Source: Rhodohalobacter sulfatireducens
GTDB lineage: Bacteria; Bacteroidota; Rhodothermia; Balneolales; Balneolaceae
Assembly (NCBI RefSeq): GCF_022012475.1
Contig: NZ_JAKLWS010000019.1
Coordinates: forward strand, 1-64,000
DNA: 64,000 nucleotides
Direction of reading: 5' to 3'
Part shown: piece by piece, positions 48,194 through 54,088 of the stretch
How the letters are laid out: the number at the start of each line of letters is the position of its first letter
Numbering within the stretch: position 1 is the first letter of the stretch
Made by a program: the position numbers and the translations under genes
Notes under the pieces: generated by a model
Database searches by the model: none
What the model was told of the DNA's origin: nothing
Seen by the model: the letters and a program-made list of their open reading frames with translations, nothing else

Positions 48194-48625
48194 TTGGGAA
48201 TATTAAGTAACATAACATCTTTGAGAAAACGTGGTATGATTGTTCTCCTGTTATTGATCTCCTGTACGCTATCCATCTACCTGTTATATATTTCTGACCC
48301 CACACCGGTTTATCACTTGGAATCTCCACGACAGATCGATTCACTCATCACTGAATCCTTTCGTGAGTTTGACATCCCAAACGGGCAGGTCAGAACCCAA
48401 AATATTCGCATTGACAGCACTTTTACCCGGAAACGGTTCACTGTTGAAGTTCCTCCCACTTTTTCAAAAACCTCCTTTCACTACAGGCTTCATCAACGGC
48501 TTTGGCCTTACAGCGCTGAAACGATTGGCAGAGTTGAGTTCCCTGATAAAGATCTGCACCTCCACGTTCAGTACAACCAGACCATCCTCCGAACGATCTA
48601 CTTGTACTCCGAGTCGAGTGATTAA
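48194..48625 (+). CDS. Membrane-anchored protein upstream of the ECF sigma gene
   Basis: 143 residues from a TTG preceded by AGAAGGA at about 10 bases; an ATG at 48236 is the alternative and would start directly at the membrane segment. One N-terminal membrane segment (about 15-33, MIVLLLLISCTLSIYLLYI) is followed by an extracytoplasmic domain of about 110 residues (SPRQIDSLITESFREFD, then FTRKRFTVEVPPTFSKTS). No family recognised. It lies 87 bases before the sigma factor in the same direction and may belong to that system as a sensor or regulator, which is inference from position. Confidence 0.6.
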   Translation: MGILSNITSLRKRGMIVLLLLISCTLSIYLLYISDPTPVYHLESPRQIDSLITESFREFDIPNGQVRTQNIRIDSTFTRKRFTVEVPPTFSKTSFHYRLHQRLWPYSAETIGRVEFPDKDLHLHVQYNQTILRTIYLYSESSD

Positions 48626-48712: not shown

Positions 48713-49273
48713 ATGAGCAATCAGAACCAGGATATCACATTGTTACTCAACAGATTACAAGATGAGGATTCCAATCTTGTTGAAGAGATTTATCCCCTGG
48801 TTTACGATCATCTCCGGAACGAGGCTCATTATCAACTGCGGCGAGAGCGTGCCGGGCATACTCTCCAAACAACTGCTTTGGTAAACGAAGCATATCTTAA
48901 AATGGTGGATCAGGAAAAAGCAGATTTTAATAATCGGACCCATTTTTTAGCTGTTGCCGCTCTTGCAATGCGCCGAATTTTAGTCAGTTATGCTCGAAAA
49001 AAGAATGCCCAAAAACGAGGAGGAAAAGAGCAGGCAGTGACTTTTAACGATGGAATGACACCGTATGAAGCGCCACTAACTGAATTGCTGGACCTTGAAG
49101 AACTTCTTCAAAAAATGGAGGAAATGAATGAACGTCAGGCCAAAATTGTGCAATATCGTTTTTTTGGCGGACTCACGTACAAAGAGATAGCAAATGTGGT
49201 TGGCGGTACCGAGCATTCAGTGAGATATGACTGGCGTGTTGCACGAGCATGGTTGAAACGGGAGTTGGGTTGA
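48713..49273 (+). CDS. ECF-type RNA polymerase sigma factor
   Basis: 186 residues. Region 2 covers about 20-90 with AGHTLQTTALVNEAYLKMV and FNNRTHFLAVAALAMRRILV, the signature of the TIGR02999-type ECF group. Region 4 is about 125-180 with MNERQAKIVQYRFFGGLTYK and EIANVVGGTEHSVRYDWRVA. This group typically has no anti-sigma gene but is next to a Ser/Thr protein kinase, as here (kinase gene at 49641). In studied cases of related groups the kinase phosphorylates the sigma factor. Three matching upstream elements occur nearby (49414, 53313, 54057). Confidence 0.93.
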   Translation: MSNQNQDITLLLNRLQDEDSNLVEEIYPLVYDHLRNEAHYQLRRERAGHTLQTTALVNEAYLKMVDQEKADFNNRTHFLAVAALAMRRILVSYARKKNAQKRGGKEQAVTFNDGMTPYEAPLTELLDLEELLQKMEEMNERQAKIVQYRFFGGLTYKEIANVVGGTEHSVRYDWRVARAWLKRELG

Positions 49274-49287
49274 TCCCAACAAATCGG

Positions 49288-49393
49288 AATTCGTTACGTC
49301 GCTAAATCTTTAAATCGTTAGATCAGATGTTTTACAGACATTAATTGGGTGGATTTTTATTGATTTATCGATTTTTGAGATTTCTGTTTTCGG
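49288..49393. repeat. Rearranged copy of a palindromic repeat
   Basis: Contains TTACGTCGCTAAATCTTTAA and ATCGTTAGATCA (49291-49325), then TGATTTATCGATTTTTGAGA (49360 on). These are the right and left arms of the palindrome at 52471-52568 in swapped order. The two copies flank the kinase gene. Confidence 0.6.
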
Positions 49394-49413
49394 ATTTAAT
49401 GATTGTATTTGAT

Positions 49414-49445
49414 TTCGCCATTTAAGATCATTTTCGCGCGTGTAG
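49414..49445 (+). promoter_or_regulatory. Putative sigma-factor-type promoter of the kinase gene
   Basis: TTCGCC (49414-49419), 16 bases, GCGCGTGTAG (49436-49445). The same bipartite element with identical spacing is found upstream of the genes at 53277 and 54018 on the minus strand. Here it lies 195 bases before the kinase ATG, with a dispersed repeat in between. Confidence 0.6.
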
Positions 49446-49457
49446 TATAAGAACGGA

Positions 49458-49600
49458 AATCTCCCCTCTTGGGAGGGGACAGATGGTGAAACGTTCTGTG
49501 AAACCATCAGTGGTGGGTTCACGCTTATGCCGGTACCCAGGAAACACACCCCGAGTTCATTCGCTAAACACTCATTTCATTTTCCCCTCTCAAGAGTGGA
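49458..49600. repeat. Dispersed repeat, copy B, inside the kinase leader
   Basis: Second copy of the element at 30868-31013, sharing CCCGAGTTCATTCGCTAAAC and the flanking CTCATTTCA and TTTCCCC. The hairpin keeps the AACGTTCT loop but its stem is GATGGT / ACCATC instead of GATTCTCA / TGAGAATC, so the stem differs while pairing is kept. It lies between the putative promoter and the kinase start. Confidence 0.8.
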
Positions 49601-49640
49601 GAATATATTTTTGCCATCTAAAAAATCAAACATTTAAACC

Positions 49641-52178
49641 ATGAACCCAGACCAATGGCATCGTGTCCAGTCACTCTTCAAAGAGCTTGTTGATTTAGAT
49701 CAGGACACCCGAATTGAGCGCCTTGAATCTGTTAAAACGGAAGACCCTCTTCTTTTTGAAGAGTTGATGTCACTTTTGGCCGCGGACTCTGACGATACCT
49801 CTCTGATAGATGGATTTGCCATCGACCAGCTTGATATCTCACAACTTATCGATCATGAAGGTGAACAGATCGGTCCCTTTCTAATTGCAAAGACGATTGG
49901 CTCCGGTGGAATGGGTAGTGTGTATTTAGCTCATCGTGTGGAGGGCGGTTTTGATCAAACTGTTGCTTTGAAACTGATAAAAATTGGAATGGGTTCTGAA
50001 CAGGCGATTCGCCGGTTCGAATCAGAGCGAAAAATTTTAGCACGTTTACAACATCCACATATCGCGAGGCTGGTGGATGGCGGAATGACCGGCAAAGATC
50101 ACCCATGGTTTGCTATGGAGTATGTGGAGGGCGAAAATCTTCTCACCTACTGCGACCGGCTCAACCTTTCTATAGAAAAACGACTTGAGCTTTTTCTCGA
50201 TGTAACTGAGGCCGTTCAATACGCTCACAAAAATTTAGTCGTGCATCGGGATTTGAAACCCGGCAACATCATGGTGACCGGCGACGATAGTAAACCGTTG
50301 GTGAAACTTCTGGATTTTGGAATTTCACAGATCATGGATGAATCAGAAGCGGATCAAGCCGGTATTAAAGCGATGACACGAGCCTATGCCTCACCTGAAC
50401 AGCTCAACGGCGAATCCACCTCTACGGCCACAGATATCTACAGCCTGGGTGTGATTTTGCATCAATTGATATCCGGTTCTCATCCAAAAGAGGAGTTCAG
50501 ATCAAGAAATTCTCACCCAAAACCATTTGATAAAGAACTGGCAGCTATCTGTGAGAAGGCGATGCAAAACGATTCCTCCGGTCGTTTTCAAAATGCCTCT
50601 GACTTTGGAGAAGAGATCGACGCGTGGCTGAAGAACCGCCCTGTTTCCTCTTACTCTGTAAAACCAATGTATCGGTTCAATAAATGGATGAAACGAAATC
50701 GCGCGGCATCTCTTATTGGAATATTTGCTTTTATTGCCTTGGCGGCAGTGGTCTTGCTGTATACAAATGAGCTCCAAAAAGAAACTGAACGAGCTCAACA
50801 GGAGGCCGAAACATCAGAACAGATTGCCGGATTTTTACAGGGATTGTTTGAACTGACCGATCCCGCTCTCTCTCGTGGTGATACACTCACAGCATTCACC
50901 ATGTTGGATCGAGGAGCTGAACAGATCGAAGAAGATCTTCAAAACGATCCCGAAATCCTGGCTCGAATGTACGATGTTTTGGCCGAGGCTTATCTGAACC
51001 TTTGGAATACAGAAAAAGCGGAGGAAATCTATAAAAAATCGTTAGCGATTAAACAGGATATCTATGAAAATGATCATAATGAAATCGCTAATAGCTTCCA
51101 TAATATCGGCCATATTTATGTTCAGGATGGCCATTTTGAGCAAGGTGACTCTTTGCTTACTGCCGCATTACAAATTCGCCGATCTACCCTTGATCCGAAT
51201 GATCCGGCCATAGGATTAACACTCCAGCGGCTCGGATTTTTGAAACTCCGAACCGGTCAAATAGACCAGGCAGAAGAACTTTATACTGAAGCTCTCAGGA
51301 TTTTTGAAACCGGCACGGACAATCAGTCTGTGATGGAAGCGGCGTCACTTGTCAACAGTCTCGGCATGATTCATGAAAACAGGGGTGAATATGAAAAAGC
51401 CGTTTCCAATTATCGGGAAGCGGTCGAAACCTTACGCGCTATTGAGGGAGATGATCATCCACGTGTCATTAATTACCTATCCAATCTTGGATATTCGCTG
51501 AATCTTTTGGGGAAATCCGAAGAAGCAGAACCCTATATAGCGGAAGCTATAGAAGTTGCAAAACAAGTTCGCGGGGAACGGCATCCACACACGGCTTTGG
51601 CAATGAATGAGTATGCAAACTTCTATTTTTCTCAGGGAGAATATGAAAATGCTGAAATAATGTTTAGGGAGATTCTCGATATATACATTGAGACTTTTGG
51701 TGAAGAGCATCCCGCCATTCCGGTGATCTACAATAACCTGGGCAATACCCGTAATAATCTCGGTGATTTTGAAGCAGCCCTCGAATACCACCAATATGCA
51801 CTGGACCGCCGGATTGAACTCTATGGAGATATTCACAGCGAAACGGCTCAATCATTCGCAAACCTGGCCACCACTTTTAGCGACATGGAGCGATATGAAG
51901 AGGCGTTGGAATACTACAACAAAGCGCTGGATATTGAAGTGCAAGTATACGGCGAACTCCACCCCGAAACAGCTTACAGCTACGAAGCAATCGGCAATGT
52001 GTACAAATATATGGGCCAAATGAACGAAGCCGAACAGAACTACCTGAAAGGATATGAGATTCTATTGGAAGTGCTGGGTGAAGAACATATTGAAACTGAG
52101 AATGCCCGAGAGCGGTTGGTGGAATTATATGAGGAGACTGGGCAGGATGAGAAAAGAGATGCTTTTTTGGGAAACTAA
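49641..52178 (+). CDS. Transmembrane Ser/Thr protein kinase with C-terminal TPR repeats
   Basis: 845 residues, same architecture as the kinase at 5767. The N-terminal WHRVQSLFKEL helix region (1-60) is the sigma-linked kinase type. Kinase domain about 78-340: glycine loop GSGGMGSVY (87-95), Lys111 in VALKLI, HRDLKPGN with Asp204, DFG starting at Asp226, and ASPEQL. Membrane segment about 355-376. The TPR region (about 400-835) has at least eight units with G-x-x-HPE, LGN and YEEA patterns. With the adjacent ECF sigma factor it probably forms a signalling pair in which the kinase controls sigma activity. The TPRs are outside the membrane if the topology is as read. Confidence 0.94.
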   Translation: MNPDQWHRVQSLFKELVDLDQDTRIERLESVKTEDPLLFEELMSLLAADSDDTSLIDGFAIDQLDISQLIDHEGEQIGPFLIAKTIGSGGMGSVYLAHRVEGGFDQTVALKLIKIGMGSEQAIRRFESERKILARLQHPHIARLVDGGMTGKDHPWFAMEYVEGENLLTYCDRLNLSIEKRLELFLDVTEAVQYAHKNLVVHRDLKPGNIMVTGDDSKPLVKLLDFGISQIMDESEADQAGIKAMTRAYASPEQLNGESTSTATDIYSLGVILHQLISGSHPKEEFRSRNSHPKPFDKELAAICEKAMQNDSSGRFQNASDFGEEIDAWLKNRPVSSYSVKPMYRFNKWMKRNRAASLIGIFAFIALAAVVLLYTNELQKETERAQQEAETSEQIAGFLQGLFELTDPALSRGDTLTAFTMLDRGAEQIEEDLQNDPEILARMYDVLAEAYLNLWNTEKAEEIYKKSLAIKQDIYENDHNEIANSFHNIGHIYVQDGHFEQGDSLLTAALQIRRSTLDPNDPAIGLTLQRLGFLKLRTGQIDQAEELYTEALRIFETGTDNQSVMEAASLVNSLGMIHENRGEYEKAVSNYREAVETLRAIEGDDHPRVINYLSNLGYSLNLLGKSEEAEPYIAEAIEVAKQVRGERHPHTALAMNEYANFYFSQGEYENAEIMFREILDIYIETFGEEHPAIPVIYNNLGNTRNNLGDFEAALEYHQYALDRRIELYGDIHSETAQSFANLATTFSDMERYEEALEYYNKALDIEVQVYGELHPETAYSYEAIGNVYKYMGQMNEAEQNYLKGYEILLEVLGEEHIETENARERLVELYEETGQDEKRDAFLGN

Positions 52179-52470
52179 GTATTAAAGATCAGACTCTATA
52201 CGAAAAACAATATAAAGACTCCTTTTTAATAATGGATTCTGATGGAAAAACAGTGATGGTGCTGATTTTCGATGAACTGTCGGTCCATGAGACAGATGTC
52301 TGATGAATGGTTTTATGTCAGTTTGAACCTGCTGTTGTTGATAAACAAACGCAATGAATGAATGTGCCTCAAATAGCCGGTGAAACTGAAAAGTTGTCTA
52401 TACAATTCATTGCTTTTCAACTTTAACCACTCCGTTCCATCGCGCTTAATATATCGGTTCGCATTTCTTT
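52179..52470. other. Spacer after the kinase gene
   Basis: No supported coding frame. The convergent lipoprotein gene ends at 52573, and a palindromic repeat occupies 52471-52568. The stretch itself shows no clear terminator. Confidence 0.4.
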
Positions 52471-52568
52471 TGATTTAACAATTTTTGAGATATTCGATTT
52501 CCGACGTAGCGATTTGAGAAAACAGATTGAGAATCGCTACGTCGCTACATCTTTAGATCGATAAATCA
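52471..52568. repeat. Palindromic repeat, intact copy
   Basis: Outer arms TGATTTAACAAT (52471-52482) and ATCGATAAATCA (52557-52568); inner perfect 13-base stem CGACGTAGCGATT (52502-52514) / AATCGCTACGTCG (52532-52544). A rearranged copy lies at 49288-49393. The arm sequences resemble a small non-coding mobile palindrome. Confidence 0.75.
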
Positions 52569-52572
52569 ATCA

Positions 52573-53277
52573 CTACTCATACATCACCTTCAACTGCTCC
52601 ACAAATACTCCCCGGTTATCCGATTCGGCATTACAATCCACGAGAGAGAAGGAAACAATATCAACTTGCAATTTACACTGCAGTGATACCTCAACTCTGT
52701 AAAGTTCATCCTTGGTAAGATTCAACTCATAGGATTCACGAATACTGCTCTCTACATCTAACTTTTGGAGAGCTTTAAGCCCACTGCCAATTCCATCACG
52801 TTCAAGTTGACGTGAAAAAATTTCTGAACCGGTACTGCCATTTGGATTCATATGACGAACTCGGAGATGTACGATCATTTCTGTGCTTGATGAAAGATTG
52901 ATCGCCGATAGCAATGTCCCCTTCCAGTTGATATCTACCAGTAAGGAGGCTTCATCTGCCTTTGCATAAAATCTTGCATAGCCGACTGCGGTTGCACTTT
53001 TTGTATCGCCGGGTCCTGCTACATTTACAGTCGTTCGCGATAACATTCGCTGATTTCCAATATCTGTAGCCGCGTATTCTGTCCACCGGGCATTACCCTC
53101 ATTTTTCCCTGCTGAAGAGGAGGTAATACTCAGTTCCTGGTCCTCAATAATCTCCGGTTCCTCCTCTTCGGGACCGACTCCGTTATCGCTGCAAGCAGTA
53201 CTGATGACGAATAATAAACTGAATAAGAAAAATAAATCTCGGACCTTCTTTGATAATGGTTGGTTTAAAGCTTTCAT
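52573..53277 (-). CDS. Lipoprotein of unknown function
   Basis: 234 residues with a lipoprotein signal peptide (hydrophobic FFLFSLLFVIST then AC, attachment Cys about residue 29) and an acidic linker after it (GPEEEEPEIIEDQEL). The rest (about 55-234) is beta-rich with RWTEYAATDIGNQRM and HLRVRHMNPNGSTGSEIFSR. No family recognised. Its upstream region carries the same bipartite element (53313-53344) as the kinase and the outer-membrane protein gene, so it is a probable target of the local sigma factor. Confidence 0.75.
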   Translation of the reverse strand: MKALNQPLSKKVRDLFFLFSLLFVISTACSDNGVGPEEEEPEIIEDQELSITSSSAGKNEGNARWTEYAATDIGNQRMLSRTTVNVAGPGDTKSATAVGYARFYAKADEASLLVDINWKGTLLSAINLSSSTEMIVHLRVRHMNPNGSTGSEIFSRQLERDGIGSGLKALQKLDVESSIRESYELNLTKDELYRVEVSLQCKLQVDIVSFSLVDCNAESDNRGVFVEQLKVMYE

Positions 53278-53312
53278 GACATTGAATATTTAGTTTAAAA
53301 AATGGGTTACCT

Positions 53313-53344
53313 CTATACGCGCAAAGCGATGAGATACCGGTGAA
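53313..53344 (-). promoter_or_regulatory. Putative sigma-factor-type promoter of the lipoprotein gene
   Basis: Minus strand: TTCACC, 16 bases, GCGCGTATAG, ending 35 bases before the ATG at 53277. Matches the elements at 49414 and 54057 in sequence and spacing. Confidence 0.65.
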
Positions 53345-53454
53345 TATTTTGACCCGATCTTATGATGAGATATCACTTTTAAGAAAAACCCATCTACTTT
53401 TGAGCGTTTTTTAATGGAAATAATGCGGGACTTAGGGTGGGTCCAAAAAGGTTT

Positions 53455-54018
53455 TTATAAAAGTGTAAAACGCAAACCAACTGTAATTCCCATCACATCT
53501 ATTGCAGAGCTTTCTTCACTTCCCTTAAACCCGTGCATATATCGAAAGGCTCCATAAATTGACGTTCCGGGATTTAGGATGTAATGTGGTGCAATGGTAA
53601 GGCCAACTTGAGGACTGACATCCTTATAGGTACTGAAAGCTTGATACTCAATAATGGATGCCCCCCCTGTTGCCATAAGTGGAATGTGAACTTTTTCAGC
53701 TGCAATATATTTGTAACCCAGTGAGCCAAAAAAACCCATACCACTTGAAAAGTTTTCACTGCCTACTGTTTCAGATACCACGTAGATAAAATCAAGCTGG
53801 CCAATAAAATTTTGATATTGGAGATCGCCAAAAATACCTACCGTGGTACCGGAATCATCATAATCACCAAAACTTAAAACAGGTGCATAACCGACTGAAG
53901 CTCCTACTGAAAGTGAAAGTTGATCGCTATAATTCAAGTGTTGGGCATAGCCGTTCGGCACATAGATTAAAAATGTCATAGCCAGTATCATCATGTATTG
54001 CATAATTCGTGAGTTCAT
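53455..54018 (-). CDS. Small outer-membrane beta-barrel protein
   Basis: 187 residues with a signal peptide (about 1-25, ending NGYAQ). Strands alternate (LSLSVGASVGYAPVLSF, GDLQYQNFIGQLDFIYVV, MGITVGLRFTLL) and the chain ends in an FTLL strand typical of outer-membrane barrels. Family unknown; it resembles small OmpW/PorT-like barrels in size only. It shares the bipartite upstream element and is likely co-regulated with the lipoprotein next to it. Confidence 0.78.
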   Translation of the reverse strand: MNSRIMQYMMILAMTFLIYVPNGYAQHLNYSDQLSLSVGASVGYAPVLSFGDYDDSGTTVGIFGDLQYQNFIGQLDFIYVVSETVGSENFSSGMGFFGSLGYKYIAAEKVHIPLMATGGASIIEYQAFSTYKDVSPQVGLTIAPHYILNPGTSIYGAFRYMHGFKGSEESSAIDVMGITVGLRFTLL

Positions 54019-54056
54019 AATCAGGATATTTATTTTTTTTGGATGGTATTCACTTT

Positions 54057-54088
54057 CTATTCGCGCAAAAGAATTGAAAAGCGGCGAA
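54057..54088 (-). promoter_or_regulatory. Putative sigma-factor-type promoter of the outer-membrane protein gene
   Basis: Minus strand: TTCGCC, 16 bases, GCGCGAATAG, ending 38 bases before the ATG at 54018. Together with 49414 and 53313 it defines TTC(G/A)CC-N16-GCGCG(T/A)(A/G)TAG. The remaining part of the gap (54089-54376) shows no gene. Confidence 0.65.

What the first reader, a model, noticed from the sequence alone, without database searches (positions are those of the whole stretch)
49414..54088. Three genes near the ECF sigma factor share one bipartite upstream element
TTC(G/A)CC, exactly 16 bases, then GCGCG(T/A)(A/G)TAG occurs at 49414-49445 (plus, before the kinase), 53313-53344 (minus, 35 bases before the lipoprotein ATG) and 54057-54088 (minus, 38 bases before the outer-membrane protein ATG). 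I found no further copy elsewhere in the window by eye. The gene at 48713 is a kinase-linked ECF sigma factor. I infer these are its promoters, and that sigma factor, kinase and two surface proteins form one signalling system, perhaps with the membrane protein at 48194.
Basis: partly seen in the sequence, partly recalled or inferred. Interest (0 to 1): 0.8.

Follow-up and report, generated by a model that had tools for sequence, protein, structure and literature searches.

The report
Kinase-gated sigma factor's private promoters
A bacterial gene switch, a sigma factor paired with a protein kinase, appears to have its own promoter sequence, which in this genome stands before only three neighbouring genes and in related bacteria stands before genes for pore-forming, toxin-like surface proteins, so the switch probably controls a surface attack or defence system.

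Summary
TTCRCC-N16-GCGCGWRTAG occurs exactly three times in the window and exactly three times in the whole 5.1 Mb genome, all within 4.7 kb. The sigma factor is TIGR02999/PF07638 with the QTTA motif of kinase-activated ECF43 factors. The kinase is a membrane Hanks kinase with TPRs. In orthologous loci of about a dozen Balneolota genomes the same element (spacing 16 or 17) lies before the kinase wherever the kinase is not directly operonic. It also lies before neighbouring lipoprotein and OMP genes, but not before the sigma gene or paralogous kinases. A matrix trained on the three window sites alone finds them. New: in most relatives the controlled genes are cholesterol-dependent-cytolysin-like (PF01289) lipoproteins. 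In more distant families of the class, PF01289 genes again sit beside a related sigma-kinase pair, with an element of the same geometry, changed -35 and similar -10. Best reading: a phosphorylation-gated ECF sigma with kinase positive feedback and a tiny local regulon; here only a lipoprotein and an OmpA-type barrel remain as targets. There is no experimental proof.

The parts
48713..49273 (+). ECF sigma factor, 186 aa, TIGR02999 / PF07638; QTTA motif in region 2.2 at residues 52-55 (codons 48866-48877), predicted phospho-acceptor T54
   Evidence: TIGR02999 196.6 bits, cut-off 126; alignment: QTTA in 13 of 13 members of the clade
49414..49445 (+). promoter element for the kinase gene: -35-like TTCGCC 49414-49419, 16-nt spacer, -10-like GCGCGTGTAG 49436-49445; 195 nt before the ATG
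   Evidence: conserved at the same place in orthologous loci
49641..52178 (+). Hanks-type Ser/Thr kinase, 845 aa: kinase domain, one predicted membrane segment near residues 355-377 (read from sequence), C-terminal TPRs
   Evidence: Pkinase 1.8e-42, TPR_12 5e-91
52573..53277 (-). predicted lipoprotein, 234 aa, no known family; target gene
   Evidence: homologue with element in G008; structure model poor
53313..53344 (-). promoter element of the lipoprotein gene, 35 nt before the ATG
53455..54018 (-). outer-membrane protein, 187 aa, predicted 8-stranded OmpA/NspA-type barrel; target gene
   Evidence: pLDDT 78.5; NspA 1p4t TM 0.72; homologues in G003, G004, G008, G052, each with an element
54057..54088 (-). 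promoter element of the OMP gene, 38 nt before the ATG

Best explanation
The element is the cognate promoter (-35 TTYRCC, -10 GCGCGTATAG, spacing 16 or 17) of the ECF sigma factor at 48713. That sigma is of the kinase-activated ECF43 type. The membrane kinase encoded next to it senses a still unknown envelope or extracellular signal and phosphorylates T54 of QTTA, which lets the sigma bind core RNA polymerase. The holoenzyme then transcribes the kinase gene (positive feedback through the kinase, not through the sigma gene) and a very small local set of surface proteins: here one lipoprotein and one OmpA-type barrel. In most orthologous systems the main targets are CDC-like pore-forming lipoproteins, so the module is best read as a regulator of a surface attack or defence system, of which this genome keeps the accessory part. 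Shown by computation: the element, its restriction to this locus, its co-occurrence with the sigma clade, its targets. Inferred: promoter activity, dependence on the sigma, phosphorylation, feedback, biological role.
For: Three exact copies in 5.1 Mb, all at this locus. A matrix from the three window sites alone scores 18-31 before 13 of 15 orthologue-type kinases and 15-31 before 19 target genes in other genomes; shuffled 99th percentile 12.7, maximum 17.6 of 600; sigma upstream regions at most 9.5; 16 paralogue kinases at most 8.5. The two exceptions are kinases placed 6 nt after the sigma (L089) or 110 nt after another kinase (L077), that is, operonic. A strict spacing-17 pattern gives 18 hits in 245 genomes of the class and none in the backwards control; those inspected precede CDC-like lipoproteins, kinases, a small lipoprotein or the FG-GAP neighbour. 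CDC-like genes (PF01289) occur in 7 of 59 near relatives, all among the 11 with the sigma orthologue (hypergeometric 1e-6). The orthologues form one clade, 100/99 support, with a clade-specific region-4 helix HSVRYDWRVARAWLK (one member A for S) and QTTA in 13 of 13. In distant families the CDC-like gene, sigma and kinase are again adjacent, with an element ATCGGT-N16-GCGTCTATA or near it before both a CDC-like gene and the kinase gene (L165, L166): same geometry, similar -10, different -35, and a different region-4 helix (VPTVRRDWRLARAWL). QTTA and the kinase neighbour are hallmarks of ECF43 (PMC13147305; PMC8999054).
Against: No transcript data, no start mapping, no binding or phosphorylation assay. 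Most genomes are metagenome assemblies. ECF43 assignment rests on the QTTA motif, TIGR02999 and gene context; no ECF43 model was available. A transcription factor could in principle bind the same two blocks. G004 and G045 have elements but no sigma orthologue was found (in G004 the kinase contig begins just upstream of the kinase's element; G045 is 88% complete). G005 (97% complete) has an element before a broken lipoprotein reading frame and no sigma orthologue.
Confidence: 0.85

Rival explanations
1. The two blocks are the operator of a conventional transcription factor, or a factor-assisted promoter, not a promoter read by this sigma.
For: GCGCG is partly palindromic; no assay distinguishes the two. 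A few elements lie in genomes where the sigma was not found.
Against: The blocks are asymmetric, 16 or 17 nt apart, in fixed orientation and mostly 30-60 nt before lipoprotein and OMP starts, as a promoter would be. The element tracks the sigma clade, and the -35 block differs in the sister group whose region-4 helix differs. No other regulator gene was seen shared by the orthologous loci in the flanks read.
Confidence: 0.08
2. The element is a housekeeping promoter of these bacteria or a dispersed repeat, and the clustering is accidental.
For: A two-block promoter shape is common; the locus also holds ordinary intergenic repeats.
Against: Only three copies in the genome, spacers and flanks unrelated to one another; absent from the loci of paralogous sigmas.
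Confidence: 0.02
3. The sigma does use the element, but it is not phosphorylation-gated at T54: the kinase acts at another site or elsewhere, or is only a co-regulated target.
For: In X. citri EcfK the T51A form still works and a second site in the linker matters (PMC13147305).
Against: QTTA in 13 of 13 clade members without the usual acidic residues, and a kinase beside the sigma in every locus long enough to show it.
Confidence: 0.12

Closest known systems
ECF43 sigma factor / Hanks kinase pairs: EcfP-PknT (Vibrio parahaemolyticus), EcfK-PknS (Xanthomonas citri)
   Same: sigma with the acidic region 2.2 motif replaced by a QTTA-type motif, encoded beside a membrane Ser/Thr kinase; in X. citri the output is a weapon (T6SS) that protects from amoebae (PMC13147305, PMC8999054)
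   Different: different phylum; kinase with C-terminal TPRs; output is lipoproteins, an OMP and in relatives CDC-like proteins; a private promoter element can be read off, with apparent feedback on the kinase gene
CDC-like (CDCL) two-component antibacterial toxins of Bacteroidota
   Same: CDC-related lipoproteins at the cell surface; in B. fragilis the CDCL operon also holds a lipoprotein (immunity protein BcdI) and a porin (PMC11169675), reminiscent of the lipoprotein plus OMP here
   Different: relatives here carry PF01289 lipoproteins with or without C-terminal FG-GAP repeats, each with its own promoter element, beside an ECF/kinase switch; the window genome has no PF01289 gene; homology of the window lipoprotein to BcdI was not tested

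Membership tests
ECF43 (kinase-activated ECF sigma factors) | sigma-70 ECF architecture, PF07638/TIGR02999 | tested here: met
   160.5 bits and 196.6 bits, both over cut-off
ECF43 (kinase-activated ECF sigma factors) | region 2.2 motif without acidic residues, consensus QTTA with conserved Thr | tested here: met
   Q52-T53-T54-A55; 13 of 13 clade members; consensus from PMC13147305
ECF43 (kinase-activated ECF sigma factors) | gene next to a Hanks-type Ser/Thr kinase gene | tested here: met
ECF43 (kinase-activated ECF sigma factors) | placement by the ECF classification model for group 43 | not testable with these tools
   no such model among the libraries
ECF43 (kinase-activated ECF sigma factors) | phosphorylation by the kinase activates the sigma | not testable with these tools
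   needs experiment
CDC-like (PF01289) locus | PF01289 protein encoded behind the element | tested here: not met
   in the window genome: none. Met in relatives G003, G014, G021, G023, G024, G052, G054

The most novel reading that the evidence does not exclude
A class-wide, phosphorylation-gated sigma/kinase module is the dedicated switch of CDC-like pore-forming lipoproteins in Balneolota and allied families, with sigma and promoter co-evolving; the window genome holds a derived form that lacks the pore-formers and keeps only the lipoprotein and barrel, for instance as self-protection or receptor.
Probability: 0.45. Interest if true: 0.75.

Novelty: new variant of a known kind. Interest (0 to 1): 0.62.

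Why it matters
In the papers I could search I found no target promoter described for an ECF43-type factor; here one can be read off, is specific to a sigma clade and predicts its regulon genome by genome. It links a eukaryote-like kinase switch to a large, mostly uncharacterised family of bacterial pore-forming lipoproteins, and gives a reporter with which the unknown inducing signal could be searched. The sister group, with changed -35 and changed region-4 helix, looks like a natural case of sigma-promoter co-evolution.

Tried and rejected
Membrane protein at 48194 as part of the system: no element, no homologue in orthologous loci. Autoregulation of the sigma gene: no element before it in any of 12 clade members. 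Element as a general TIGR02999 promoter: absent from paralogues, of which two clades show other two-block motifs of their own. Window lipoprotein by structure: AlphaFold model too poor (pLDDT 48), so no fold search; no PDB or plasmid relative. Viral contigs: no relative of the sigma. Stretches that read N next to the sigma in L082 and L083 were left alone.

Full report
Observation. The element TTCRCC-N16-GCGCGWRTAG is present at the three stated places and nowhere else in the 5.1 Mb genome without mismatch. Relaxed patterns with spacing 16 or 17 and one mismatch give only background outside this locus. The distances to the lipoprotein and OMP starts (35 and 38 nt) are as stated; the kinase has a 195-nt leader.

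The genes. The gene at 48713 is an ECF sigma factor of TIGR02999/PF07638, one of six over the TIGR02999 cut-off in this genome. It carries QTTA at residues 52-55 in region 2.2, as do all 12 orthologues aligned. [quoted passage not shown] PMC8999054). The gene at 49641 is a Hanks kinase with TPRs. The lipoprotein has no known family. The OMP is modelled as an eight-stranded OmpA/NspA-type barrel.

Independent test in other genomes. Orthologues of the sigma (66-76% identity) occur in ten of the 58 relatives searched, counting a fragment in G021. A matrix built only from the three window sites was run on upstream regions in those genomes. It finds a site scoring 18-31 before 13 of 15 kinases; the two exceptions are operonic. 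It finds 15-31 before all 19 other candidate targets. Shuffled sequence reaches 12.7 at the 99th percentile and 17.6 at most. Upstream regions of the sigma gene itself (12) and of paralogous kinases (16) do not exceed 9.5. Some of the non-kinase targets were first noticed with a matrix that included relatives or came from pattern hits, so they are not blind; the kinases are chosen by gene identity and position alone. Spacing is 16 in the window genome and mostly 17 elsewhere.

What the element controls elsewhere. In G003, G014, G021, G023, G024, G052, G054 and the GSL.Bin13 genome (L086/G103) the genes behind it are lipoproteins with a Thiol_cytolysin domain (PF01289), many with C-terminal FG-GAP repeats. 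In G004 and G008 they are the OMP and a small lipoprotein, as in the window. PF01289 occurs in 7 of 59 genomes, all among the 11 with the sigma orthologue. Over 245 genomes of the class a strict pattern gives 18 hits and no control hit; those whose downstream gene could be read precede CDC-like lipoproteins, kinases, a small lipoprotein or the FG-GAP neighbour.

Distant families. The class-wide search finds PF01289 genes in more distant families without this element. Four of the loci read there (L165, L166, L167, L168) again hold a TIGR02999-type sigma and kinase beside the PF01289 gene. In L165 and L166 both the kinase and a PF01289 gene follow a different element, ATCGGT-N16-GCGTCTATA or near it (by eye and by a regular expression, not by a calibrated model). 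The geometry is the same and the -10 block alike, while the -35 block and the region-4 helix of the sigma both differ. On a tree these sigmas and the window clade fall in one supported group (99/96), which also holds two further sequences, par_L057 and par_L070, that were not examined for such targets.

Mechanism. Best reading: the kinase senses, phosphorylates T54, the sigma binds polymerase, and the kinase gene and surface-protein genes are transcribed; feedback runs through the kinase, not the sigma. Only the sequence relations are shown; promoter activity, phosphorylation, feedback and role are inferred. The window genome, without PF01289 genes, may hold a reduced form. In B. fragilis a lipoprotein beside the CDCL genes is an immunity protein and a porin is encoded in the same operon (PMC11169675); a similar role for the window pair is a guess.

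Novelty. ECF43-kinase pairs and CDC-like proteins are both known. Their link, and a clade-specific promoter with apparent sigma-promoter co-variation, I did not find in the papers searched; the EcfP paper of 2020 did not come up in the library, so an already described ECF43 promoter cannot be excluded.

Noticed in passing
L056, L059, L061, L062, L063 (upstream of the sigma gene): Another TIGR02999 sigma clade has its own two-block motif, AAGCC-N18-TATCA, 60-110 nt before the sigma gene itself, suggesting autoregulation there.
   Followed up: partly
L054, L065, L067, L069, L071: A third TIGR02999 group, with no kinase gene seen directly adjacent, has TGAGCT-N16-18-T[TG]CA before the divergent gene, mostly small predicted outer-membrane proteins.
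   Followed up: partly
window 49278-49404 and 52463-52568: Two pairs of 48-52 nt direct repeats, 75-79% alike, flank the kinase gene: one set between sigma and kinase, one after the kinase.
   Followed up: no
L103 (G005:C21:247499): An element stands before a broken reading frame that begins like a lipoprotein and continues in FG-GAP-like sequence in another frame, in a genome without the sigma orthologue: perhaps a decaying target.
   Followed up: partly
L074 11222-11608, L078 8940-9332, L081 7261-7629: A 122-130 aa gene that looks like a four-helix-bundle (S23-type) protein by eye lies between sigma and kinase in three genomes.
   Followed up: no
L077 7510-9441: A PF01289 gene is split by a stop codon into two reading frames in G024.
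   Followed up: no
L082 8486-10750 and L083 2809-5838: Stretches reading N lie beside the sigma gene, with element-like sites near their edge; not pursued.
   Followed up: no
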